64,000 nt of DNA from Liolophura sinensis (taxonomy: Eukaryota > Mollusca > Polyplacophora > Chitonida > Chitonidae), in contig NC_088295.1 of assembly GCF_032854445.1 (NCBI RefSeq), positions 44,565,385 through 44,629,384 on the forward strand, in the 5' to 3' direction. The translations under genes were made by a program, and so were the position numbers. Below are positions 7,401 to 59,665 of the stretch, in pieces; positions within the stretch are counted from its first letter, which is position 1, and each line of letters begins with the position of its first letter. The notes below the pieces were generated by a model, which made no database searches, was not told the DNA's origin, and saw nothing but the letters and a program-made list of their open reading frames with translations.

Positions 7401-10400
7401 TGGGATACGAGCCTGGTAAAGGCTTAGGGAAGAAGAGCCAGGGTATAACAGCCCCCATAGAGGCTGTCCAGCGGAAGGGAACTCGGGCAACACTTCAGTA
7501 CTATGGCCAGGAAAAACCCGCCTCGGCATACAAGAATGTTGTGGACTCGGACGAAGAAGAGGCTAAAGAGTTCAAAGAGCAACTTCAGCAGTGGAAAAAG
7601 CAACCAGAGGTAACATTTCACAGTGTTTGAGTTTTATGGTGGGATGTTTAAGTTACATGTATAATAAATTCTAATTTTAGAATGGAAAAGTTAGAAGCTG
7701 ACAGAAAGCTAAAGCAGATAATGAATTCTCAGAGAGATTTAGATAATAATAAAAAATACATGTAGTACATGTTAGCATTATGAATCATGCTCAAAGGAGA
7801 TCCCAGAGCAAAGTAAACGCTTTTTATCTGTGATCAGTAAAATTTTTGGCATCCTGTCTTTTAATAGGGACTAATTCTTTTAATGAAGGGTCTGAATGGA
7901 AAGTACCAGTTTTTGACTTTCGCAACTATTGTGAACCTTTACTTGATTTTAATCGAGCTTTCTGAATCACCTTATGCTAGTATCTGAATATATCAGATAT
8001 CCCATTTCAAGACGTCGTATAGCATGAATATCATTGTGTTGAATATGTTGGTTTATTTAAATACTCCCTTATTTTTCATCAGGGCCTGAGGAAAAGACCA
8101 AAGTATCAATACAAGACAGCTCAGGAGCTGATTGAAACAGGCAGCACCAAGAAGCGGAGAGGACCAGCCAGCGATATTGCCAAAGTGAAAGTGATTGACA
8201 TGACGGGCCGGGAGAAGAAGGTCCTCTCAGGTAAAATTTATCACATGCTCACTGGGGCTGGACAGTATAGGGCAGTAATATGATTCATGTGAGCAGTGCT
8301 TCTGTGGATGTTAAATGTAATGAGTTATATTGTACTTTGTTTTCTTTTGTATTACTACTGATGGAAGATAAAATATGGTCAATTTTGTGTGGGTTGGCTT
8401 CCATAATATTTCTTTTTGTGCCTCAGTCTCATCTTATTCCTGTGTAAATTCTTCAGTGTTGTTCAAATTGTGTTCATTAATTGTTGCACTGGGTTATCTT
8501 ATATTTCTCATTTGTGTCAGCAGGTTACTATGCTGTTTCTCATCTGTCTCACCAGGTTACAAAGCTATTTCTCATCTGTCTTACCAGGTTACCATGCTAT
8601 TTCTTATTTGTTTCACCAGGCTACTTAGCTATTTCTAATATGTCTCACTATGTTACCTTGCTATTTCTCACATGTCTCACCAGGTTACCCAGGCTACTTT
8701 GCTATTTCTAATATGTCTTACTACATTACCTTGCTATATCTCACATGTTTCACCAGGTTACAAAGCTATTTCTCATATGTTTCACCAGGCACAGCAAGCT
8801 TTTTCTCATTTTTCACCAGGGTATTCTATACCTCATATGTCTCACTAGGTTACCATGCTATTTCTCACGTCTTATCACATTACCTTGCTATTTCTCATCT
8901 GTCTCACCAGGTTACCATGCTGTTTTTCATTGGTCTCACTAGGTTACCATGCTATTTCTCATTGGCCTCACCAGGTTACCCAGCTATTTCTTATTTGTTT
9001 TATCAGGTTACTATGCCATTTCTCCTTTGTCTCACCAAGTCACCATGCTATTTGTCGTTTGTCTTACCAGGTTACCATGCTATTTCCCACCGCCACGACA
9101 GACCTGATGAAGATGAGGATGACTTCCAGGATGAAGGCCCCAAAGCCCGAGTGTTTGATATGCCAGAGCTAATCCACAACCTCAACCTGCTGGTGGACAT
9201 GGCTGAGGAAGAGATTGTACTCAATGACAGGAAGTATGTGCTCTCTTAGCCACTGAATGCCATAAATACATGGAACTTTAATTTAACTGATCTTTCAGGT
9301 CAACAGCTGAAGTGTTGCACTGCAGCTGACTTGCCTTTAATGGGTGATGTTTTGGTTCCAGTTTCTGCTGGAAGTTTTGCTTCAGCTTGAAGTTTGCTAA
9401 CTAGGTTTTTTTTGGTACATGTACTTTGTAAATTTCTGTGGTTTTCTGCATGAGCTTCCTGGTTTTTCCATCTTTGTTAAATATTCTTTAGTATGGTAGT
9501 AAAATCAGTTCATAAGAAATGAAATCTAGTCATAAACTGACATCTTATATAAGACACTTTATTGCACAAGAGTAAGTGAACCGTGGGAATACAGACAACA
9601 GACGCCATGCATGACGGTTGTTTACAGCTGGTATATAGTACTGAATAATAATTCATCTCTTAACTTAAATGCTTTGAAAACAAAAAGACTTAAACTTCGA
9701 ATAACAGATTTGGAATTTTCTGTCAGTAATGAAACCAGTTTCTGCCAGTTAGGATATTTCCAGTGAAAAGGTAGAGTATACTTTTTACGCAAATTACTGA
9801 ACGCTGGGGCAAACAAGAATGAAATGAAACTCATCCTCCAGTATATTAGATAGTACACATTTTCTATTTTCTACTGTCTACATACAGTCACGTAGAAAGA
9901 TGCTCTAGTGGATGTGCTCAGACACTCGTTCCAATTCTGCTTGAAATTATCTCTTAACCTTAATTTCACTGTAGACAGAAAAACATTGACATTTCCAACA
10001 CTTTGAACCCAGTATACATCCTTTAACCCCAAATTACAAAGCAGATTGCGTAATCGCATACACCAGATTTCCTTATTGGGATAAAGATATACATCATGTA
10101 ACATTATATTATACATTTGCTTTCGTCAAGAAATAACAATTTCGTCCAAAATTTAACTATAATGAACGTACATCTTGTGAATAAATCTATCCTTCAGAGT
10201 TGACCAGAGATGAAGTCATTTTGTGTAAAGCGCTTTACCTCGAGAACAGACTTACAAAATTGAAGGTGGACAGTTTCTAATCTTTCACCTATAGAGAAAC
10301 CTTGCACTTCAGCCTGGTAATTCAAAATCGGAAGCACAGGTTTATAAAATGGTTGTGATTAATGATGAACTGTTACGTTATCAAAGTTATACAGATTTTA

Positions 10401-27400: not shown

Positions 27401-30400
27401 AGCTGAACAAAACCATCAAAAGTAGAATTATGTTGTAAATGTGGTGATTCTTTGTCATTTCAGAGGTTCGTGATCATGGTGTGGGGTTTTACCAATTCTC
27501 ACAGGAAGAGGAACAGAGACAAGCTGAGATGGAGAGGCTGGCAAATCTCAGACAACAGGTCAGTACCACTTAAAGGCTGCTTGTGAAATAGAGATACAGC
27601 TGTAATTACCATTTTTAAGTATGGCCTACAGCATAAGTATTAGTACAGGCTGCAGGCAAAAGCACTTGCAACTAATCAACTAGTGGTAGTACTTTGTTGT
27701 CTACAGTGTCATTAACTTAACCAAAGGTTGGTGGCTTACCCCAGACACTCAGGTTTCCTCCTCTTAGAAACGTGACTGCCATCTGTAAGTGAAATCCTCC
27801 TCTGAGAAAACTGACTGCCATCTGTAAGTGAAAATCCTCCTCTGAGAAAACTGACTGCCATCTGCAAATGAAAATCTTCCCTCAGAAAACTTTCGGCCAT
27901 CTGTAAGTGAAAATCCTCCTCTCAGAAAACTGACTGCCATCTGTAAGTGAAAATCCTCCTCTCAGAAAACTGACTGCCATCTGTAGCACCACAAAGTGGC
28001 AGTTTGTGTATATGACCAGTCCCTAGAGCCTCCACATATGTGTGGCTAATTTAATCATGTGATCTTTGCTATCCCTGCAGTGACTGGCCAACATGATATT
28101 GAAGCAAGAGAGGATTATGAACATGTCACAGAATAATGGTATGTTTTCTTTGTAGACAGTGGACCAGAGAAGTAAGCGTGAGATGATCAAAGAGAAGAGG
28201 AAGGCCATGCTGGAGTCACGCCTGGCAAAGGTCAAGCAGAGGAAGCTGGGGCGTGAGGGTGGGGGTGTATTCTCACAGGTTGCTCTTCAGACAGGTCTGT
28301 ATTACACTACCCTAAGTCCTCAGCCATTTTACATAGGAAAGAGCAAATATCAGTGCAATTTATGCACATTTGTAATTTGATTTGGAGACAAAACTCCATT
28401 GGTTAGGTTGCCCAATTTCAGGGTTTCACAAAAAGTATAATTTTATCAATCTACACAGAATAATGCTTTCAGAATATGCTTGAACGAACACTTTGCAATT
28501 ATGCGAAAATGTTGAAGCATTACAGCAATACTTTATATTACCTGAAGTTTAACCCCACACAAATACAGTAAATGCGATAAACCATACTACTGTATTAAAC
28601 TTTAGACTTCCTACCATCAGTTTCTCATCTAATATTTTACTTGCTAGGATCTAATTGGTGATGAATTCTCAACCCACAGCGAACATGATTTATTAACTTT
28701 TGTTTTTTTTTTGTGCTAGACGATTCAGTCAGATTTTGTATGTTTATTAACTTTCCACTGACCAGCACCTAGTGAAATTTAGAACAGACAAGTTTATGAA
28801 GTTTTATGAGTTATCACCCTTTGAAAGTATGGCTTCATGAAACCACTGGTCTGTCCATATGCATAGGGTGTAGTTGAGTGATGTCGGCAAATAAATGGCG
28901 TGTCCTGATGTATCTTACCCTAGACTTGGTGATTCTTAATGTCTGGGTGTGTGTTAAATATTCTAACGAGGTACTGCTTCTCCCTAGTCTCTACATAGTT
29001 CTCTCCACCCTTAAACCTGATAGCAGTTAAATATTCTCTGGAATATAGCACCCGGCAAATAATTGAAGAATTACAGAATTGCCTGTTTATCTTGATGTTA
29101 CAATACAAAGTGTTAACCATGGTTTATACTGACAGATTCAAAGACAGAAGAGAAACCAGAGACAAGTAAGGAACAGAAGGTTGACCAAGACAAGGATGTG
29201 GAGGCCAAGGTAGAGTCTGTGTTACAGGCAGTGAGGAAAGCTGAGAGCAGAACAGCTGCAGTGAGGGAGTGGGACATCGGCAAAACAGGTGACTGAGCAC
29301 TAGATAATACATACATGCATGTATGTGCTAAAGACAAACAAATGGGAGTAATTCATATCTTCATTAACTTAGAAATTATTTTTCACAGAAATAAATGTTT
29401 GTAGAAATTGCTTTCAAAGGAATAAATGTCATTAGAAATTGTTTTCACGTAAATAAATGTTAAGAATTGCTCTGACGGCAATAAATGTTAAGAATTGTTA
29501 TCACAGAATTAAATACACGTGCAATGAGATGTTTCAATTGTTATATGTGTTTTATAGACAGAATATGTATTCTTCCTCAGTCACTCTGACCTTCTCTCAT
29601 TTTTTTAAGGTAGATAATAGTGTGATTATAGCAGGTTTTCATGACTGGGGGGTTTAGGATAATGACTTAGGATAATTTCTGCAGTTTAAATCTCGTGCTG
29701 CCAGTGAGTTGGAACTTTATGTACTCCTAACATAATGCCATATCAGATGGATTAAAACTTTAGGATTAACATAACCACACATGATTTATAGCGATCAAGT
29801 TCATGAACTCCCCACTGACAGGTTTTACATGGCTCAAATGACATGTTTTACATGGCTCACATTTTCGCACGGTTCCCTTTTCTCTTTCAGAATATTTGAA
29901 TTTGCAGTGGGAAAATCGTAAGCAGAAGTTAGAAGATGACAGAAATCCAGAGTTCGCTCCCCCAACAGCACTGTACAGCATGGAGACAGCCAATCAAAAC
30001 AAGCCAAATGTCAGAGGCAGGAGAAGGTTTCCTGTTGGAGGTCAAAGGTCACAGGAGCCACCACAGGTTAAAATCCTCACAAGGGAAGAGTATGAGGCTC
30101 AGTGTAGAAACACATCAACTGCTTCATCCACGGCCTCATCTGACAGCACAGTCAAAACTGAGCCTGTCATTCAGAATTTATGTGATATACCATTGCCAGA
30201 ATGTCAGCCCAGCAAAGTGAAGCAAGAGCCAGTCTTCTGTCACAGTGGTGTAAAACATGATAACTTTACTCCAGAGTTTTCCCAAGATTCAAACTTTGCC
30301 CAGGCAGTTTCAGTGGAACAGGTTATGTTGCCAGGTTGTTCAATGCCTTTGTTTGCCTCATCTGTATTTAACACAACAGTGCCTCCACCTGGATTTGACA

Positions 30401-30885
30401 TTACAGTGCCCCCACCTGAATTTGACACAACAGTGCCTCCACCTGGATTCGACACTACAGTGCCCCCACCTGCATTTGTTGGTGCTGTACCTCCATCAGG
30501 ATTTGACCCCCATCAACCTCTCCCTTCCCCAGAACCTGTACCCCCTGCTCAGGCACATGTGAACCCTACAGTTCAACCACCATTTGCCCCAGTGCCTTCT
30601 GTACACTGCCAACCTGTGTCACATCATCACAGTATACCTCAGGGTAGTACTACTCAGCCTGTATCAGCAAGTAATAGCCAAGAACCTGTTGTTGTGCCAA
30701 AACTGCACATTATGGACACACGGTACATTAAGAACAAGGAGGCTCCAGTACTGGCTACTCTCACGCCCGCAGGCCAGGTAGGCATTGCAGAGGTGGTGAC
30801 ATCAAACACAGGGGCTGCTCCACCAGTGGTGTCCAACCCTGTTATCAGTGGGCAGCCTGTTAAATACATGACACAGGAAAAATGA
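21462..30885 (+). CDS. CCDC174: Coiled-coil domain-containing protein 174
   Basis: Orthologue of CCDC174, a nuclear coiled-coil protein; published work links it to the exon-junction complex. Eleven coding exons join in phase: 21462-21503, 22670-22768, 23034-23134, 24019-24080, 24706-24871, 25721-25816, 26871-27016, 27464-27558, 28156-28294, 29136-29288, 29891-30885; 2,094 nt, 697 aa. The tiny first exon encodes 14 residues ending SS before GTAAGT. Family hallmarks: SSLVDLKAELFRKQEEFK; KPNIWSKKNAGV; KLYEKMT; EEWVEFTDSLGRVRTCMRKDL; LMSEDMRRELERERWE; GVGFYQFS; the coiled coil TVDQRSKREMIKEKRKA, then ESRLAKVKQRK; VREWDIGKT; and DRNPEFAPP. Human CCDC174 is 467 aa; here the last exon alone gives 330 residues, mostly a Pro/Ser/Thr/Gln-rich tail with five 9-residue TVPPPGFDT-type repeats. 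It is followed by a minisatellite containing its own terminal codons. Confidence 0.95.
21852..22152 (+). mobile_element. SINE-B, near full-length
   Basis: A tRNA-like head is visible (CATGGTTCATTGGTAAGGCT as a weak A box, TTGGTTCAAATCCAG as a B box). The body has the SINE-B core GGGTGGTTTACCCTGGGCAC and the shared 3' region CATCACATAAGTGAAAAATT, TCACTATGGTGTTAAACACC. It lies in CCDC174 intron 1. Confidence 0.7.
24178..24392 (+). mobile_element. Composite SINE (SINE-B core joined to SINE-A tail)
   Basis: The SINE-B core (TAACTGGCAAAAGGTTGGTG) is followed by SINE-A body pieces (CACCTCTCTCCATAATGCTC, CATAATGCTGGCCCCC) and a shared tail ATTGTATAAGTGAAAGATAT, ending in about five AAATA units. Either a recombinant element or two neighbouring insertions; in CCDC174 intron 4. 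Confidence 0.6.
24983..25310 (+). mobile_element. SINE-C, full-length candidate
   Basis: A tRNA-like head, TAGCACAGTTGGTAGAGCGT, gives a clear pol III A box; GACGGGTTGCACC is a weak B box. The body (AGTGCAACGACGGGTTGGCC, CAGTATAATGACTCGGGTGG, CTGCAACAAGGAGGCACATT) is also found on the minus strand at about 63235-63538, which shows that this is a dispersed family and not a tRNA gene. The end is near AAAAAATTGTTAAC. It lies in CCDC174 intron 5. Confidence 0.75.
25912..26003 (+). mobile_element. SINE-A 3' fragment
   Basis: Body and tail blocks CACCATAATGCTGGCTGTTG, TCGTGTAAGTGAAATATTCT, TGATTACAGCGTAAAAC and a degraded AATAAACAAATA end, in CCDC174 intron 6. Confidence 0.75.
27180..27270 (+). 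mobile_element. SINE-A 3' fragment
   Basis: Blocks CCCACCTTAATCCTGGCTGC, TGTATAAGTGAAATATTCTT and GAGTACAGCGTAAAACACCA, with a short AAATAAATA tail, in CCDC174 intron 7. Confidence 0.8.
27700..27990 (+). repeat. SINE-B with an internal 40-bp tandem array
   Basis: A SINE-B core (CCAAAGGTTGGTGGCTTACC) runs into its next segment (CTCCTCTTAGAAACGTGACT, GCCATCTGTAAGTGAAA), and that segment is then repeated about six times with a 40-bp period (units at about 27757, 27796, 27836, 27876, 27915 and 27955). Four units carry the perfect donor hexamer GTAAGT inside CTGTAAGTGAAA. The array lies in CCDC174 intron 8, between the exons ending 27558 and starting 28156. Confidence 0.85.
29371..29515 (+). repeat. 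~30-bp tandem array carrying poly(A) hexamers
   Basis: Five diverged units of the form AGAAATTG-TTTTCACAGAAA-TAAATGTT lie in CCDC174 intron 10. Four contain AATAAA and the last has ATTAAA, the two commonest animal polyadenylation hexamers. The array is between the exon ending 29288 and the large last exon starting 29891. Confidence 0.75.
30376..30510 (+). repeat. 27-bp coding repeat in CCDC174 last exon
   Basis: Five in-frame units encode TVPPPGFD(T/I) variants: two perfect PPPGFD forms, then PPPEFD, PPPAFV and PPSGFD. The bases keep a strong similarity (ACAGTGCC(T/C)CC(A)CCTG), so the expansion is recent at the DNA level. It lies in the Pro-rich tail of the protein. Confidence 0.85.
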
Positions 30886-31540
30886 GATGTGATGTCAGAC
30901 GTGAGGCTTCTCCAGTGGTGGTATCAAACCCTGTCATTAGTACTCAGCCTTTCAGGTACATGACACAGGAGAAGTGAACTGTGACATCAGACACAGGGGC
31001 TTCTTCAGCAGTGGTGTCCAACCCTGTCATTAGTGCTGAGCCTGTTGGTTACATGGCACAGAAGTGAACTGTGACATCAGACACGGGGGCTTCTTCAGCA
31101 GTGGTGTCCAACCCTGTCATCAGTGTTCAGTCTGTCAGTTACATGGCACAGAAGTGAACTGTGATATCAGACACGGGGGCTTCTTCAGCAGTGGTGTCCA
31201 ACCCGGTCATCAGTGCTCAGCCTGTCAGTTACATGACACAGAAGTGAACTGTGATATCAGACACGGGGGCTTCTTCAGCAGTGGTGTCCAACCCGGTCAT
31301 CAGTGCTCAGCCTGTCAATTACATGGCATAGAAGTGAACTGTGATATCAGACACGGGGGCTTTTTCAGCAGTGGTGTCCAACCCTTTCATCAGTGTTCAG
31401 TCTGTCAGTTACATGACACAGGAGAAGTGAACTGTGATATCAGACACGGGGGCTTCTTCTGCAGTGGTGGCCAACCCTGTCATCAGTGCTCAGCCAGTCA
31501 AATATGTGACACAAGGGAAGTGAGCGGGGCCTAGTGGTTA
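30800..31540 (+). repeat. 90-93-bp minisatellite re-copying the CCDC174 C-terminus and stop
   Basis: The gene's last ~25 codons (GAAPPVVSNPVIS, then YMTQEK and TGA at 30883-30885) form the first unit. About seven further units follow, each with GTGGTGTCCAACCCTGTCAT, a CAGCCTGTCAGTTACATG-type block and AGAAGTGA, so each re-encodes a similar C-terminus with its own stop in the CCDC174 frame. Because 90 is a multiple of three, another frame stays open for 156 codons (31064-31534); that frame is a by-product of the repeat. Confidence 0.9.
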
Positions 31541-40860: not shown

Positions 40861-41884
40861 TATCTTGTCTACAGGGCTTCTGTACAACGTTGCAAGCCTC
40901 TTAAAGAAAATACAACGCTGTAAAGAAGCCTGTGGACAAAATTCAACAGAGCTTGATTATTTACAATTATTTTGTTCACAGCGCCTACTTATTTACAACC
41001 ACATATTTTGTCCACATAACTTGTTTACCGAATTGTCCGGACCAGCCTTCAAAGACCTTGAACTTTGAATGAACCTCCCCAGTAACGAAACCACACAGGT
41101 TGCGTCGAGCGCAACATTCGTCAGAAGTTTGTGCTTTATGGCAGGGACCATAATTTGTATGTTTTATGCAACGAAAGAACTTGCAAAAGTTAAAGTCAAA
41201 AATTAAAAATTAATTTTAATTATCATTCCTCTATGATTCCCATCGTCTTCAGTCATTTTCTTGGAGTGGAATGGAGACACTTCCTGATCTGTTCAAACAC
41301 ATGTCTATATGTCAATGTACATGCACAATCTTCTGTATCTTTGTTGAATCTGGGCAAATGGCAGGCTTTAGAGTCAAATGTGTTATTTACAATTTAACCT
41401 GTTGATACACACAAACTCGCAAATGCTATAGGCGATGGGTGGTCTTCGGTTTGTACGTACTTCCTTTTTGAGACTGTCACCTTGTAGATGCAACTGTTAC
41501 ATTGAAGGTAAGGTACATATGGTTGGGGATCATTTGTGTTATTTTCTGTTAGGCAAGGGATACACAAATAATCGATAAGATCATATCGGGAGGTATTTTT
41601 GCTGTATGCGGTATAGCTAAAATTTAATGTTATACGTTGTTGACACTAGGATATCATGCGCACTTTGCTGTTATGACGATGGTGATAGAGAGCTATAGGG
41701 ACGGAAAGGCTTATTGATTAAAGCATATGTAGTAAAGTTGCTACGCACATGCACGAAGTCATAATTTATGAATAGTGGGCAAAAAATCAAATATTTGCTG
41801 TGATATGTTATACTGCATATGTTAATTAATACAAATATGTTTGACATGTATGTATGCATGGCAGTTAGAGAAATCTCAGTATTA

Positions 41885-45865: not shown

Positions 45866-48800
45866 ATGATGGACGAAAAGAGGGATAAAGAAGACACCTC
45901 TGGTGTCAGACAACGTTCTACAGCCGAAAATCAGGACACACCGACGGAAGTTGGGAACAACCATAATTATAATACTGTTAACAACTCTGGAAACAATAAT
46001 GATCAGTCCTGTATCAACGATGCCAAGGATTCGGCCAGTAAGGCTGAAAGCAATGCTTTAGCCGGTAAAGGCAATTCGTTCCAAGATCTTGAAGAAACTG
46101 AGTCTAACACTAATACTGAGGACAATGACCCGATCAAAGACGCTGAAGGCAATGATTCGCCCAACAACACTGAAGGCAATAATTCGAGGAATAACGCTGA
46201 AGGCAATGATTCGAGAAATAACGCCAAAGACAATGATTCGACCAAAAACAACGAAGTGAGTGACCCAGTCAAATATCCTGATAGGAGCTCAGCCATCTTA
46301 GGGGCAGATAGTCACAACGAAACCAATGTGGCCAAGTTTGAGAATGCGAAGAAACACCCAAAACGACAGCTTCGATATCGTATCGTCAAAACCGGATGCT
46401 TAGTCACAACATGGATTTGCATTGTAAGTCCTTTTGTGTCTTTATTTGGGATTTCAAATTAAAAAAGTTGCAGCCAAACGTATATCATGTCCGATCATGA
46501 TATACTGCTTTTATATCAAAGAAATTCTCTCAGTTTCACGTACACTTGTTGTGAAAAAAAAAAGACAGCAAGGCGCCAATAAAGAAAATGCGGTGATGGC
46601 AAAAAAAATTATTGGCGTGATATTTTATATAAGGACAACGGCCGCTCTGACTACTTACACAATTCACCTGAAATTTGCTTGATGAATTAGGCCTTAATTT
46701 GCGTATAGATGGGAAACCGCGCTGGCGAAGGGATAATAATTGGTTACCGGGCATATAATTCGGCCTTAAAAGATTTTACGAAAATGGTACTCCTAAAACC
46801 ATTTTCTAAAACACCACTCTAATCTAACGTAGATATTACCACATTGTCATCAGTAAAACTTTCTTCAGAGTATACATAAACGCCATCATCATCCACAGTT
46901 TCGTATATTTCCATAGGGCTTCATTAAAGGTCGTATTTTGTCCACAGGGCTTGTTTACCGAAATGTCCGGACCAACTTTTAAAGACCTTGAACTACGACT
47001 AAACCTTCCCAAAAAGGAAGCCACAGAGGCTGTATCGAGGGCAACTTCCGGCAGAAGTTTGGGTTTTATGGCAGGGGCTATCATTGGTATGTGTTTTATG
47101 CAAGAATATGTCTTGAAGATGCATGTTTTAAGATGCATTTATTTTACACATTGCCTTTGGTCGTTTCCTCAGCGTTGAATGGAGACGCTTTCTGATTTTT
47201 TTATATCCTAGACTAGCTTATGGCGATATGTCGATGTACATGTACAATGAATCTTTGTTAATTCTGGACAAATGGCAGGTGCTGAACTTATAAATATATA
47301 TGTAATTCGTGCCATTGAACCTGTAAACAGATACAAACCCGCAAAATTATACAGGCGGTAGATGATCTTCAGTTTGTACATACTTCCATTTTGAGAGTGT
47401 CATCTTGTAGATGAAACTGTTACATTGGGGGCAAGGTACATATATATGGTTGTTTTATTTTCTGTTAAGCAACAGATTCAATAACAAACAAACGATCGTT
47501 ATCATATTATCAGCTAGTATTTTTATTGTACACATACACACAACATATCGGCCTAATATATGTGTAGGGTGTCCTATCGTTATACCTTGTGTATATATAG
47601 CTGACACTAGGATATAACGCGCACTTTGCTCTCACTTTGAAGATTACAGAGAGCTGTAGGGAATGAAAAGCCAACTAATCAAAACATACAAAGTGACATG
47701 CGCAGAGTCTTTAGTCAGTATGAACAGTGACAAAAAGAAACACAAATTTGCTACGATTTGCTGCACAGATTATGTAATACAAATACGTCTAAAATCCTTT
47801 AAATTGACATGTGTGCATGGCAATAAGAGAAACCTCAGAATTAACTTCTATTCCCAATTCAAATGGACATCCAGGCTCACATTAACCACAAATATTCAAA
47901 GTGCATCTTAATGACGCAGATACTTGAATAACATCGCAGCAAGAGTTAACCTGTTAACCTCGTCATTATGACGTCGCCAACCAAAACGTCATCTTTTCAA
48001 GATGTCTTGAAAATAAGTTAGACGGGAAATAAACAATGAAGCCAAATAGCAGCTTAACGGACTGTAATTAGCTCCAGGATTACAAAGATGTCTAAGACTT
48101 AAGTTAGACTTCATTTGCAGTATTATTCCTGGGCTTATATTTGAATTCAAATGATAAGCTCTAATTGCGTCAAAAAAATCCAAACCAGCTCTAAGTGTAA
48201 CAATAACGTAAGTCAGAATTTTAGCGCAACGGATATGTTGTGAAGTTAAGACAAAATCAGGTTTAGGTCAAAGACTGGTTCGTGATCCTGTATTTAATTA
48301 TTTATTTATTTGATTGGTGTTTTACGCCGTACTCAAGAATATTTCACTGATACGACGGTGGTCAGCATTATGGTGGGAGGAAACCGGGCTGGGAAAACCC
48401 ACGGTCATCCGCAGGTTGATGAAAGGCTTCCCACCTGCGGTCATGCAGCGAAGGAGCCAGCATGAGCTGGGCTTGAACTCACAGCGACCGCATTAGTGTA
48501 AGGCTCATGGGTCATTGCGCCGCACTGGCGTGCATACTCCTTCGGCCAAGGAGACCCCCGATCCTGTACTGGACTGGAAAATCAGCTGTACATGGTTGAT
48601 CTGAAGCTATTAACAATATTTGAATAAATCACATAACCATTTACTATTTCACCTAGGTTTATTTCACGGAAGGAATTTAAGTGACAATTAAGGGGCACTG
48701 AAATACTGAATGATTGAAACCATCATTGAAAACTGCTGACTCCGACCTAATTTCTTTTTTTTATAACTTCTTTTCTGGTTTAGTTGAACCTTATTTTGCT

Positions 48801-50834: not shown

Positions 50835-52023
50835 GCCTAAGTTATGGGGTCAAAGTCAAATTCGTTTCAATGTATGGTTTGTCAAAAACAGAAGACGGGT
50901 AGGTATTTACATCGTTTGGTGGGACAGAAATTCCCTTTGTGTCACAGGCCGAATGTTAAAGCACCCCGAGGGGAACAGTGGTAGGTATTATGAAATAGTT
51001 TTGCTCTCATACAGCAAGGGCGTTTGGATTTAAGTGAATACACAGTTTCAACCTTCGCAGTAACATTTGCACAAACGCAGGAGGTCGAAATTAATTATTT
51101 GAAATGTAAAAATTCAAACTCAACTCTAATTATGAGCAAAGTCGAAGCACTTTGTGGAACTGATTGCAGACTTTCAAGTTATTGTTTCAGTCCAGAAGTA
51201 AGCCAGAATTTGTCTTAGTTTTGTGAAAAGATGATCCGAGTAGACAGAGTTCTACAAGTGTGCGCAAAAATACTGCCTTCGAGATAACTAGTTCATCATC
51301 CTTGATGAATCGGCGTGTTTAAATCTCAGTCAAGCTTATGGCTTTACTGTTGTTTTACGTCCAAATTGGAGGGCGATGAGCACTGGTTTCTTTACACTCT
51401 GTACTCTGGTTTCCTAAGCTTCGGTATCCCGGTTTCCACTGACTTGGTTTTTCAGTTTCCACAGACTTGATATTTCAGTTTCCATATTCTTGGTATTCCA
51501 CTTTTCACAGACTGAGTATACCAGTTTCCTCATGCTCGGTTTCCCAGTTTGCTCAGTCGTGGTTATTTTCCACAGTCTCGATATTCCGGTTTCCTCAGAT
51601 TGGGTATCCTTGTTTCCCCAGACTTGGTATTCTGCTTTCCTTACATTTCTGTATCCCGGTTTTCTCGAACTTGGTTTTCGTTTTCCATGCCACGTTGGAT
51701 AATGTCGCCGCCAACCCCACTGGGATAATAGTCCCAATAATAATAAATTCCCAGACATAAGATGCCAGAGGAAGAAATGACATTAGAGTTTAAGGTGCCC
51801 TAATAACCTGTAGGTTTCTGAGTGCTATAATAAATATAAGACAGCATTAGTTTAAAGAAATAAACTCATAAAAAACAGAGGTTAGGATTACAGTTATAGA
51901 TCATAGATGGCAATTTTACTACATTAAAATTAACAAGCAATAGTTTAGTTATTCTATCGTCTTCCGGACTCTATCATCTTTCTTCCCATTATAGTGGAAA
52001 GGATAAGAGGCGTAATAATCTAG
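50835..52023. other. 3' flank of copy B
   Basis: Non-coding. It contains the copy-B poly(A) region and the 23-bp minisatellite at 51405-51690; no other gene is recognised. Confidence 0.5.
51405..51690 (+). repeat. ~23-bp minisatellite downstream of copy B
   Basis: About twelve diverged units of the type GGTATTCCGGTTTCCTCAGA, with variants such as TTCGGTATCCCGGTTTCCAC and GATATTCCGGTTTCCTCAG. The same family lies at 59235-59665 downstream of copy C. Chance open frames run through it on both strands. Confidence 0.8.
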
Positions 52024-54116: not shown

Positions 54117-57100
54117 ATGATGGACGAGAACAGGGACAAAGAAGACATCTCTGGTGTCAGACAACGTTCTACAGCTGAAAATCACGACACACCGACGGAA
54201 GTTGGGAACAGCCATAATTATAATACTGCTAACAACTCTGGAAACAATAATGATCAATCCTGTATCAACGATGCCAAGGATTCGGCCAGTAAGGCTGAAA
54301 GCAATGCTTTACCCGGTAAAGGCAATTCGGCCAAAGATCTTGAAGAAACTGAGTCTAACACTAATACTGAGGACAATGACCCGATCAAAGACGCTGAAGG
54401 CAATGATTCGCCCAACTACACTGAAGGCAATGACTCGACCAATAACGCCAAAGACAATGATTCGACCAAAAACAACGAAGTGAGTGACCCAGTCAAATAT
54501 CCTGATAGGAGCTCAGCCATCTTAGGGGCAGATGGTCACGATGAAACCAATGTGGCCAACTTTGAGAATGCGAAGAAACACCCAAAACGACAGCTTCGTT
54601 ATCGTATCGTCAAAACCGGATGCTTAGTCACAACATGGATTTGCATTGTAAGTCCTTTTGTGTCCTTATTTGGGAATTCAGTTTAATTTATTTATTTATT
54701 TAATTGGTGTTTCACGCCGTACTTAAGAACATTTCTCTTGTACGACGGCGGCCAGCATTATTGTGAGTAGAACGGGCAGAGCCCGGGGTAAAACCCACGA
54801 CCATCCGCAGGTTGCTGACAGACCTCCCGACGTACGGCCGAAGAGGAAGCCAGCATGAGCTGTACTTGAACTCACAGCGACCGCATTGGTGAGAGACTGC
54901 TGGGTCATCACGCTGCGCTAGCGCGCTAACCAACTGAGCCACCGAGGCCCCGATTTCAATTTAAAAAGTTTCAGCCAAACGTATATCATGTCCGATCATG
55001 ATATACTCCTTTTTTTTCAAAGAAATTCTCTCAGTTTCACGTACACTTTGTTATGAAAAAAAAAAAGCCGAAAAGATAACAAGGCGCCAGTAAAGAAAAT
55101 GCGGTGATGGAAAAAAATTATCGGCATGATATTATATTTCAGGAAGATGGCCAATCTGACTACTGACACAACGTACCTGAAATTTGCCTGATGAAGTAGG
55201 CTTAACTCGCTTATAGATGGGAAACCGCGCTGGCAATAATAGGGATAATAACTGGTAACTGGACATGGCATAAAATGCGGCCTTAAAAGATTTCCGAAAA
55301 TGGTATCCCCAAAACGATTTTCTAAAACACCTCTCCAATCTAACGTGGTTATTCTTACATTGTCATCAGTAAAACATTCTTCAGTGCGTACATAAACGCC
55401 ATCATTATCCACAGTTTCGTATTTTTCCACCAGGCTTCTTTACAGTGTTGTAGTTTGTCCGCAGGGCTTCTTTACAACATCGTATTTTCTGCACAGGGCT
55501 TGTTTACCGAATTGTCCGGGCCAACTTTCAAAGACCTTGAGCTACGAATGAAATCTAGCGACAACGCCACAGAGGCTGTATCGAGGGCAACTTCCGGCAG
55601 AAGTTTGGGTTTTATGGCAGGGGCTATCATTGGTATGTGTTTTATGCAAGAATATACCTTGACGTGTTAATATGCATTTATTTTACACATTACCTTTTGT
55701 CGTTTCCGCTATGTGGAATGGAGACACTTTCTGATTTCTTTATATCCTAAACTAGCATGCCGATGTACTAGTACCATGAATCTTTGTTAATTCTTTAATT
55801 CTTGCCATTGAACCTGTAAACAGATACAAAGTCGCAAAATTATAAATTTGTAGATGTAACTATTACATTGAGGGCAAGGTACATATATATGGTTGGGGAT
55901 CATTGGTTGTATTTTCTCTTGTCATTATGAATAGTGACAAAAAGAAACACAAATTTGCTACGATTTGCTGCACTGGTTATGTAATACAAATACGTCTAAA
56001 ATCCTTTAAATTGACATGTGTGCATGGCAATAAGAGAAACCTCAGAATTAACTTCTATTCCCAATTCAAATGGACATCCAGGCTCATATTAACCACAAAT
56101 ATTCAAAGTGCATCTTAATGACGCAGATACATCGCAGCAAGAGTTAACCTGTTAACCTCGTCATTATGACGTCGCCAACCAAAACGTCATCTTTTCAAGA
56201 TGCCTTGGAAATAAGTTAGACGGGAAATAAACAATGAAGCCAAGTAGCAGCTTAACGGACTGTAATTAGCTCCAGGATTACAAAGATGTCTAAGACTTAG
56301 ATGTCTAAGACTTCTTCAGTCTAAGAGTTAGACTTCATTTGCAGTATTATTACTCGGCTTATATTTGAATTCAAATGATAAGCTCTAATTGTGTCAAAAA
56401 AATCCAAACCAACTCTAAGTGTAACAATAAAAATTTCCTAACGTAAGTCAGAATTTTAGCGCAACGGATATGTTGTGAAGTTAAGACAAAATCAGGTTTA
56501 GGTCAAAGACTGGTTCGTGATCCTGTATTTAATTATTTATTTATTTGATTGGTGTTTTACGCCGTACTCAAGAATATTTCACTGATACGACGGTGGTCAG
56601 CATGATGGTGGGAGGAAACCGGGCTGGGGAAACACACACAGAATCATCCGCAGGTTGATGAAAGGCTTCCCACCTGCGGCCATGCAGCGAAGGAGCCAGC
56701 CTGAACTCGGCTTGAACTCACAGCGACCGCATTAGTGTAAGGCTCATGGGTCATTGCGCCGCACTGGCGTGCATTGTCCCTGGGCCATGGAGACCCCCGA
56801 TCCTGTACTGGACTGGAAAATCAGCTGTACATGGTTGATCTGAAGCTATTAACAATATTTGAATAAATCACATGACCATTTACTATTTCACCTAGGTTTA
56901 TTTCACGGAAGGAATTTAAGTGACAATTAACGGGCACTGAAATACTGAATGATTGAAACCATCATTGAAAACTGCTGACTCCGACCTAATTTCTTTTTTT
57001 TATAACTTCTTTTCTGGTTTAGTTGAACCTTATTTTCCTCTTACGATTATTGATCTGGAAATTATGGAAGTCTTTGTGATTGACAATTAGTATGCGCATG

Positions 57101-59234: not shown

Positions 59235-59665
59235 GAGCAGTGGTTTCCCCATGCTTGGTATCCCGTTTACCCTAGGCTCCGTATCGCGTTTTCCCCATGC
59301 TTGGTATCCCGTTTTCCCCAGGCTCGGTTTGCTCAGTGTTGGTATTCAGGTCTCCTCAGACTTGGTATTCCGGTTTCCCCAGAAATAGTATACCGGTTTC
59401 TTCAGTTTCGCTATCCAGGTTTCAACACACTCGATATTCCGGTTTCCTCAGATTCGGTATCCAGGTTTCCACACACTCGATATTCCGGTTTCCTCGGACA
59501 TGGTATTCCAAATTCCTCAGATAAGGTATTCCGGTTCTCCTAGACATGGTATAACGGTTTCCTCAGATTCGGTATCCAGGTTTCAACACACTCGATATTC
59601 CGGCTTCCTCGGACATGGTATTCCTGCTTCCTCAGATTAAGTAATCCGGTTTCCCATGCAAAAGA
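59235..59665 (+). repeat. ~23-bp minisatellite downstream of copy C
   Basis: About eighteen units such as GGTATTCCGGTTTCCTCAGA, GATATTCCGGTTTCCTC and GGTATCCAGGTTTC(A/C)ACACAC. It shows a higher-order alternation (ATTCCGG units with ATCCAGG units) that the copy-B array does not show clearly. Confidence 0.85.

What the first reader, a model, noticed from the sequence alone, without database searches (positions are those of the whole stretch)
8519..9233. A 32-bp minisatellite in TFIP11 that repeats the exon-7 splice acceptor about 17 times
Each unit combines a strong polypyrimidine tract and CAG with the first ~16 coding bases of exon 7 (GTTACCATGCTATTTC), and the array ends exactly at the real exon. 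The spliceosome therefore meets many near-identical 3' splice sites in a row. Every third acceptor (96 bp) would keep the frame, and that frame has no stop back to about 8650, so in-frame use would insert hydrophobic 32-residue blocks; other choices reach a premature stop in exon 7. TFIP11 is itself a spliceosome-release factor, so a self-regulatory decoy is possible but is inference.
Basis: partly seen in the sequence, partly recalled or inferred. Interest (0 to 1): 0.8.

Follow-up and report, generated by a model that had tools for sequence, protein, structure and literature searches.

The report
Repeated splice sites in chiton genes
In a chiton, the DNA signal that marks the start of one exon of the TFIP11 gene has been copied about 17 times in a row, and similar stutters cover the exon edges of other genes of the same animal, a ready-made natural test of how cells pick the right splice site among near-identical copies.

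Summary
Window 8502-9086 is an 18.2-copy, 32-bp minisatellite whose last unit is the exon-7 acceptor of TFIP11 (exon 9071-9233). Eleven upstream acceptors score within the range of real ones. The genome matches the chiton Liolophura sinensis by scaffold figures.

It is not peculiar to TFIP11. The window holds a second acceptor array in an MFS transporter gene, one unit longer than in its tandem paralogue. Of 153 exons sampled elsewhere, 10 (5 acceptor, 5 donor) have arrays crossing the splice junction. Two DEAD-box loci are extreme: about 13 acceptor units, about 24 donor copies.

Best reading: tandem duplication across the junction in a minisatellite-rich genome. Arrays grow into the intron and are tolerated because exon definition should pick the copy nearest the exon (inferred). 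Decoy splice bases decay about like other columns in two of three arrays and faster in the third. Only 2 of 14 periods are multiples of three. TFIP11 self-regulation is therefore unsupported. Junction excess over chance is modest (10 against about 4). Human CBS is the known precedent. No RNA data were available.

The parts
8502..9086 (+). 32-bp minisatellite, 18.2 copies; each unit = polypyrimidine tract + CAG + first ~16 bases of exon 7
   Evidence: TRF and unit alignment
8083..8230 (+). TFIP11 exon 6
   Evidence: in-frame join, homology to TFIP11 in the PDB
8231..9070 (+). TFIP11 intron 6 (840 nt, about two thirds array)
   Evidence: exon coordinates
9071..9233 (+). TFIP11 exon 7; real acceptor CAG|GTTACC scores 10.5 bits
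8521..9007 (+). upstream decoy acceptors (first exon base if used): 8521, 8524, 8556, 8588, 8620, 8684, 8757, 8789, 8820, 8911, 8943, 8975, 9007; 4.6-13.1 bits; only 8684, 8789 and 8975 keep an open frame
   Evidence: PWM from 148 acceptors of this genome
1402..15921 (+). TFIP11 gene, 13 exons modelled (the last exons at about 17.1 and 19.1 kb were seen but not joined)
55417..55507 (+). second acceptor-spanning array, 32-bp x 2.9, two decoys before the exon of an MFS transporter gene
   Evidence: TRF and reading
55497..55632 (+). MFS gene A exon whose acceptor is repeated
   Evidence: in-frame join; Pfam MFS_1 5e-10
46903..46960 (+). homologous junction in tandem paralogue B: one unit fewer (one decoy only), exon starts 46948
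   Evidence: alignment A1
40960..41067 (+). third, degenerate paralogue of the same exon; its acceptor position reads CACAT and the frame has a stop (pseudogene-like)

Best explanation
A splice-junction-spanning minisatellite, one of many in this chiton. A short segment straddling the exon-7 acceptor was tandemly duplicated and then expanded and diverged by slippage or unequal exchange (inferred). The extra copies lie in the intron, because the copy continuous with the exon body still supplies an intact 3' splice site. Intron 6 is 840 nt and intron 7 is 2794 nt, the size range where sites are paired across the exon. The spliceosome should therefore favour the acceptor nearest the exon-7 donor (9071) over 11-13 comparable decoys (inferred from a published rule, not observed here). 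The same rule lets donor arrays be tolerated, since the first copy is nearest the exon. Leaky use of decoys would mostly give transcripts with premature stops. I read the array as a near-neutral passenger that may impose a fidelity load, not an evolved regulator.
For: Array and terminal exon. Recurrence at unrelated junctions: MFS gene with a paralogue one unit shorter; L008, a DDX3/vasa-type helicase acceptor with about 13 x 47 bp, and L022, a DEAD-box donor with about 24 x 65 bp; 10 of 153 surveyed exons. Divergence at splice dinucleotides against other columns: 0.12 vs 0.147 (TFIP11), 0.19 vs 0.092 (L008), 0.045 vs 0.061 (L022). Site strength does not explain choice: decoy 9007 scores 13.1 against 10.5 for the real site, and in L008 the real site scores 6.5 against decoys up to 16.1. 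Exon-centric proximity rule for introns over about 250 nt: PMC9225289 (abstract and passages); the 12 TFIP11 introns measured are 373-2794 nt. In the human CBS intron 7/exon 8 junction duplication the machinery strongly favours the more distal site (PMC2630376, passages; the paper writes 'donor', I read it as the acceptor).
Against: No RNA evidence of which acceptor is used. L008 decoys decay faster at AG than elsewhere (0.19 vs 0.092, 13 copies), which could be weak selection against them. Junction-crossing arrays exceed my chance estimates (10 against 2.4-4.9 expected), so pure indifference to junctions may be wrong. Related chitons could not be examined.
Confidence: 0.75

Rival explanations
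1. Self-regulatory decoy: upstream acceptors are used in a regulated share of transcripts, giving premature stops and decay, so that TFIP11 (a spliceosome disassembly factor, recalled) limits its own level.
For: 12 of 15 upstream candidates scoring 4 bits or more would give a premature stop (11 out of frame, one in frame). The gene is TFIP11; its role in the spliceosome is recalled.
Against: The same arrays sit at transporter, helicase, kinase and WD40 genes, at donors as well as acceptors; no consistent sign that decoy splice bases are kept better than other columns across three arrays.
Confidence: 0.06
2. Protein diversifier: in-frame decoys insert hydrophobic blocks (32 residues for the -96 site).
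For: Sites 8975, 8789 and 8684 give open in-frame insertions of 96, 282 and 387 nt.
Against: Only 2 of 14 junction arrays have a period divisible by 3; the open frame follows from the stop-free unit; no insertion at this place in the two best PDB relatives, 8ro2 and 8ro0.
Confidence: 0.03
3. Junctions are hot spots of array birth: some process linked to splicing, transcription or exon edges makes tandem duplication more frequent there than inside introns.
For: 10 crossing arrays in at most 306 junctions against 4.04 expected from 5000 random pseudo-junctions (66 hits; Poisson P 0.009) or 2.4 from array density times period (P 0.0002); within the same windows only 4 arrays of score 100 or more do not cross, one of them abutting a donor.
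Against: Raising the expectation to about 4.9 for coding DNA in the null (my rough adjustment) gives P 0.03; crossing was judged by eye but the null by an automatic rule; genome-wide triple GGTAAGT matches are fewer than for the reversed motif (1659 against 2352); the exon share of the unit varies widely, with no fixed break point.
Confidence: 0.2
4. Recursive-splicing ratchet: each unit's CAG|GT is used first as acceptor, then as donor.
For: Many units read CAG|GTTAC, an AG|GT juxtaposition.
Against: As donors the 13 sites scored give -0.1 to 4.9 bits; the 13 real TFIP11 donors score 5.7 to 11.4.
Confidence: 0.02
5. Assembly artefact that inflates copy number.
For: Tandem arrays can be misassembled in general.
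Against: Units are diverged (mean 0.145 from consensus), which HiFi reads averaging 8,347 bp should resolve; the 585-bp array is far shorter than a read.
Confidence: 0.02

Closest known systems
Human CBS 31-bp VNTR, c.1444_1467+7(16_21), exon 13/intron 13
   Same: By its name the unit is 24 exon bases plus 7 intron bases, so the donor is repeated 16-21 times (PMC2630376, passages; PMC1395315 table passage); like the L022, L079, L082, L090, L145 and L148 donor arrays here
   Different: Donor, not acceptor; one human gene, known to vary between people; TFIP11 is the acceptor version, and here such arrays are frequent
Human CBS 844_845ins68
   Same: Tandem copy of an intron 7/exon 8 junction; the more distal site is strongly favoured (PMC2630376, passages)
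   Different: One extra copy of 68 bp, against about 17 copies of 32 bp
Internal tandem repeats at exon-intron boundaries of human segmental duplications (De Grassi and Ciccarelli 2009, authors recalled)
   Same: Repeats at boundaries that can change introns; 27 intron modifications reported (PMC2812944, abstract and passages)
   Different: Recent primate paralogues, with formation of novel introns; here an existing intron keeps its site while the array lies in the intron
Intron gain by tandem genomic duplication
   Same: Tandem duplication involving AG/GT-bearing sequence makes new splice sites (PMC3443670, passages)
   Different: No new intron seen here; an existing acceptor or donor is multiplied
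NAGNAG tandem acceptors (definition recalled)
   Same: 8521/8524 is a CAGCAG pair inside the first unit
   Different: Most sites are about 32 nt apart

Membership tests
Splice-junction-spanning minisatellite (CBS 31-bp VNTR type) | Repeat unit contains bases from both sides of one splice junction | tested here: met
   Last unit covers CAG|GTTACCATGCTATTTC of exon 7
Splice-junction-spanning minisatellite (CBS 31-bp VNTR type) | Splice site itself repeated in tandem with usable strength | tested here: met
   11 decoys at 6 bits or more; 2.2 expected from other introns
Splice-junction-spanning minisatellite (CBS 31-bp VNTR type) | Copy number varies between individuals | not testable with these tools
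   One genome only; one match of the locus in it. The MFS paralogues differ by one unit
Splice-junction-spanning minisatellite (CBS 31-bp VNTR type) | Effect on transcripts or gene activity | not testable with these tools
   No RNA held
NMD-coupled autoregulatory splicing | Regulated non-productive isoform, usually conserved sequence (recalled definition) | not testable with these tools
   No RNA or second chiton; TFIP11 decoy AG diverges about like other columns
Recursive splice site | Strong donor directly after the acceptor AG (recalled definition) | tested here: not met
   -0.1 to 4.9 bits against 5.7-11.4 for real donors
NAGNAG tandem acceptor | Two acceptors within a few nucleotides (recalled definition) | tested here: not met
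   Spacing about 32 nt, except one CAGCAG pair at 8521/8524
TFIP11 gene | TIP_N, G-patch and GCFC domains; alignment to TFIP11 in the PDB | tested here: met

The most novel reading that the evidence does not exclude
Exon edges are preferred birthplaces of tandem arrays in this chiton lineage. A mutational process tied to splice junctions seeds multi-copy acceptors and donors at roughly one sampled exon in fifteen, giving the genome a large, changing stock of spare splice sites that its spliceosome must reject by position rather than by strength.
Probability: 0.2. Interest if true: 0.8.

Novelty: new variant of a known kind. Interest (0 to 1): 0.6.

Why it matters
Classic tests of how the spliceosome chooses between identical sites used built minigenes (recalled). 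Here one animal offers natural arrays of about 3 to 24 near-identical acceptors or donors at ordinary genes, in two of the three scored with decoys stronger than the site that must be used. Ordinary RNA-seq can read off whether position across the exon, the first AG, or strength decides. It also shows how such duplications can be carried without wrecking genes, and it warns that annotation of exon edges in minisatellite-rich genomes may be error-prone.

Tried and rejected
In-frame insertion theme: rejected as general (2 of 14 periods divisible by 3; P(2 or fewer) 0.105, so not itself significant). Recursive splicing: donors too weak. Donor motif enriched in tandem arrays genome-wide: not found (1659 triple GGTAAGT matches against 2352 for the reversed motif; these count matches, not arrays); the acceptor version was not run. 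A second copy or haplotig of the TFIP11 array: none found (one match). Literature: in the rows listed I saw no paper on splice-junction-spanning arrays as a genome-wide feature or on chiton arrays at splice sites; several of these listings were cut, only open-licence papers are held, and Zhuo 2007 (PMC1783408) was not held.

Rows dropped or missed: L060 (array abuts a donor but does not copy it) and L120 (about 100 nt from the donor) were not counted as crossing. L151, L153 and L206 are intronic. L012, L014, L029 and L030 were left out of the density estimate as overlapping or near-duplicate loci. L073, L077, L142, L143 and L195 were left out of the acceptor PWM. Three WD40 rows that met my rules were not fetched: two on C3 in one open frame, and one on C1 (open frame 130) missed by slip. 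Crossing was judged by eye from printed sequence, while the random null used an automatic rule; the null pool still contained the TFIP11, L008 and L022 arrays, which raises its rate.

Full report
WHAT AND WHERE. The window is G000:C1:44565385-44629384. G000 has 632 contigs; C1 is 96,433,062 bases and C5 19,479,325 bases. The Liolophura genome paper reports 632 scaffolds, a longest scaffold of 96,433,062 bases and a scaffold_13 of 19,479,325 bases (PMC11068029, passages). Total lengths differ slightly (609,464,459 here, 609,495,693 in the paper). The species was later corrected to Liolophura sinensis (PMC12441733, whole text). The host is therefore taken to be this chiton.

THE GENE. Thirteen exons between 1402 and 15921 join in frame to 676 aa with GCFC, TIP_N and G-patch domains. 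They match the PDB chain Tuftelin-interacting protein 11, 8ro2 (human, recalled), over its residues 20-701 (E 1.2e-233). The exon 6/7 join reads [14 protein letters not shown], opposite KVYYSYSQISHKHN there and KIYSGYDSFS in 8ro0 (C. elegans, recalled), with no inserted block. Exon 7 is therefore taken to start at 9071, and its first codons are ancestral.

THE ARRAY. TRF gives 8502-9086, 32 bp x 18.2, 73% matches. The unit TATTTCTCATTTGTCTCACCAGGTTACCATGC holds a pyrimidine tract, CAG and exon start. Seventeen units precede the real one; in the column analysis the A of the AG is kept in 17 of 17 and the G in 13 of 17. The acceptor PWM was built from 148 sites of this genome: 11 TFIP11 acceptors and 137 picked automatically as the best AG in the open frame upstream of a surveyed match, so it is somewhat circular. 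With it, 15 upstream sites score 4 bits or more, two of them (8427, 8457) before the array. Within the array 11 score 6 or more. The real site scores 10.5, and decoy 9007 scores 13.1. Other TFIP11 introns predict 2.2 such sites (41 in 11,222 bp) and 500 shuffles average 4.9, maximum 10. Three upstream sites give an open in-frame insertion (96, 282, 387 nt), one in-frame site meets a stop, and 11 are out of frame with premature stops.

NOT UNIQUE IN THE WINDOW. At 55417-55507 a 32-bp array of 2.9 units precedes the exon at 55497 of an MFS gene. Its tandem paralogue at 46.9 kb has one unit fewer, while the start of the exon and the true acceptor agree. A third, pseudogene-like copy lies at 41.0 kb. 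Copy number thus changes between close paralogues.

SURVEY. Of 30 DEAD-box exon loci cut (49 matches listed), two have long arrays overlapping the match end. L008, whose best solved relatives are DDX3X and vasa-type helicases (best 60 of 113 shown), has 47-bp units repeating TTCCCACAG|GCTGC. L022 has 65-bp units repeating CTCTACAG|GTGAGTA over at least 1563 bp, to the end of the locus. Of 28 kinase loci cut (138 matches; the best are mostly long exons), none has a listed array overlapping a match end; splice sites were not mapped there. I then took 80 WD40 exons (of 150 matches; open frame up to 90 aa, no stop, E-value order) and 73 more exons (20 kinase, 6 DEAD, 9 AAA, 38 WD40; open frame up to 130 aa, no stop), with 160 bases on each side; three qualifying WD40 rows were left out. 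Arrays crossing the junction, read from the sequence: L073, L077, L142, L143, L195 (acceptors) and L079, L082, L090, L145, L148 (donors), 10 of 153 exons. With the 58 larger loci that is 12 of 211 matches. Several exons come from the same genes, and 306 junctions is an upper bound.

MORE THAN CHANCE? Minisatellites are dense: TRF arrays of score 100 or more cover 7.2% of 84.8 kb of DEAD loci, 5.0% of the window and 1.2% of 103 kb of kinase loci. Another chiton, Acanthochiton rubrolineatus, is reported at 9.21% by TRF (PMC11545220, passages). Density times period predicts 0.0077 crossings per junction in the DEAD loci and the window, about 2.4 in 306 (0.0023 in the kinase loci). Random pseudo-junctions in the DEAD loci and window gave 66 of 5000, or 4.04 in 306. 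I treat a 2-4 fold excess as suggestive only. A donor heptamer in triple tandem is not commoner than its reversed control (1659 against 2352 matches).

SELECTION ON DECOYS. Divergence at the splice dinucleotide against other columns: TFIP11 0.12 vs 0.147 (17 copies), L008 0.19 vs 0.092 (13), L022 0.045 vs 0.061 (23). There is no consistent keeping or purging; L008 leans to purging. Periods of the 14 arrays (32, 32, 47, 65, 34, 98, 51, 35, 46, 37, 80, 67, 65, 66) include two multiples of three.

MECHANISM. Shown: arrays straddle junctions; the intact exon body is continuous with the nearest copy; PWM strength does not single out the real site (TFIP11 10.5 vs 13.1; L008 6.5 vs up to 16.1; in L022 the real donor ties with others at 10.6). 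Published elsewhere: for introns above about 250 nt, sites closest across the exon are preferred (PMC9225289, abstract and passages), and the human CBS junction duplication strongly favours the distal site (PMC2630376, passages; the paper says donor, I read acceptor). Inferred: exon definition selects the exon-nearest copy, so arrays may grow into introns at little cost, with leakage producing premature stops. The 12 TFIP11 introns measured are 373-2794 nt.

KNOWN AND NEW. The kind is known: the CBS 31-bp VNTR spans exon 13/intron 13 in 16-21 copies, and boundary repeats are described in human duplicated genes. New here, as far as the rows listed reach, are an acceptor version of this size and the frequency, about one exon in fifteen of those sampled, at both junction types. 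This rests on one genome, a small survey and no RNA.

Noticed in passing
window 27756-27985: 40-bp x 5.8 array in an apparent intron whose unit reads TCCTCCTCTCAG-17 nt-GTAAGTGAAAA, that is an acceptor-like and a donor-like site around a 17-nt micro-exon-like core
   Followed up: no
window 30796-31500: 90-bp x 7.7 array that repeats the coding end and stop region of a large exon (ORF 29842-30882)
   Followed up: no
window 51424-51641 and 59244-59654: Two similar-looking 23-bp minisatellites (TTTCCTCAGACTCGGTATTC type) downstream of two MFS gene copies, also rich in acceptor-like YCAG
   Followed up: no
window 40.9-58.8 kb: Three tandem MFS gene copies; the one at 41-44 kb looks like a pseudogene (stop, lost acceptor)
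   Followed up: partly
L195 (G000:C8:3931662-3932083): 66-bp x 3 acceptor array whose unit is mostly exon and in frame, so an extended exon would encode near-repeats of a WD40 segment
   Followed up: no
L012 22-809, L006 602-1052, L010 2724-3180, L031 2454-3159: Further long minisatellites near helicase exons; relation to splice sites not examined
   Followed up: no
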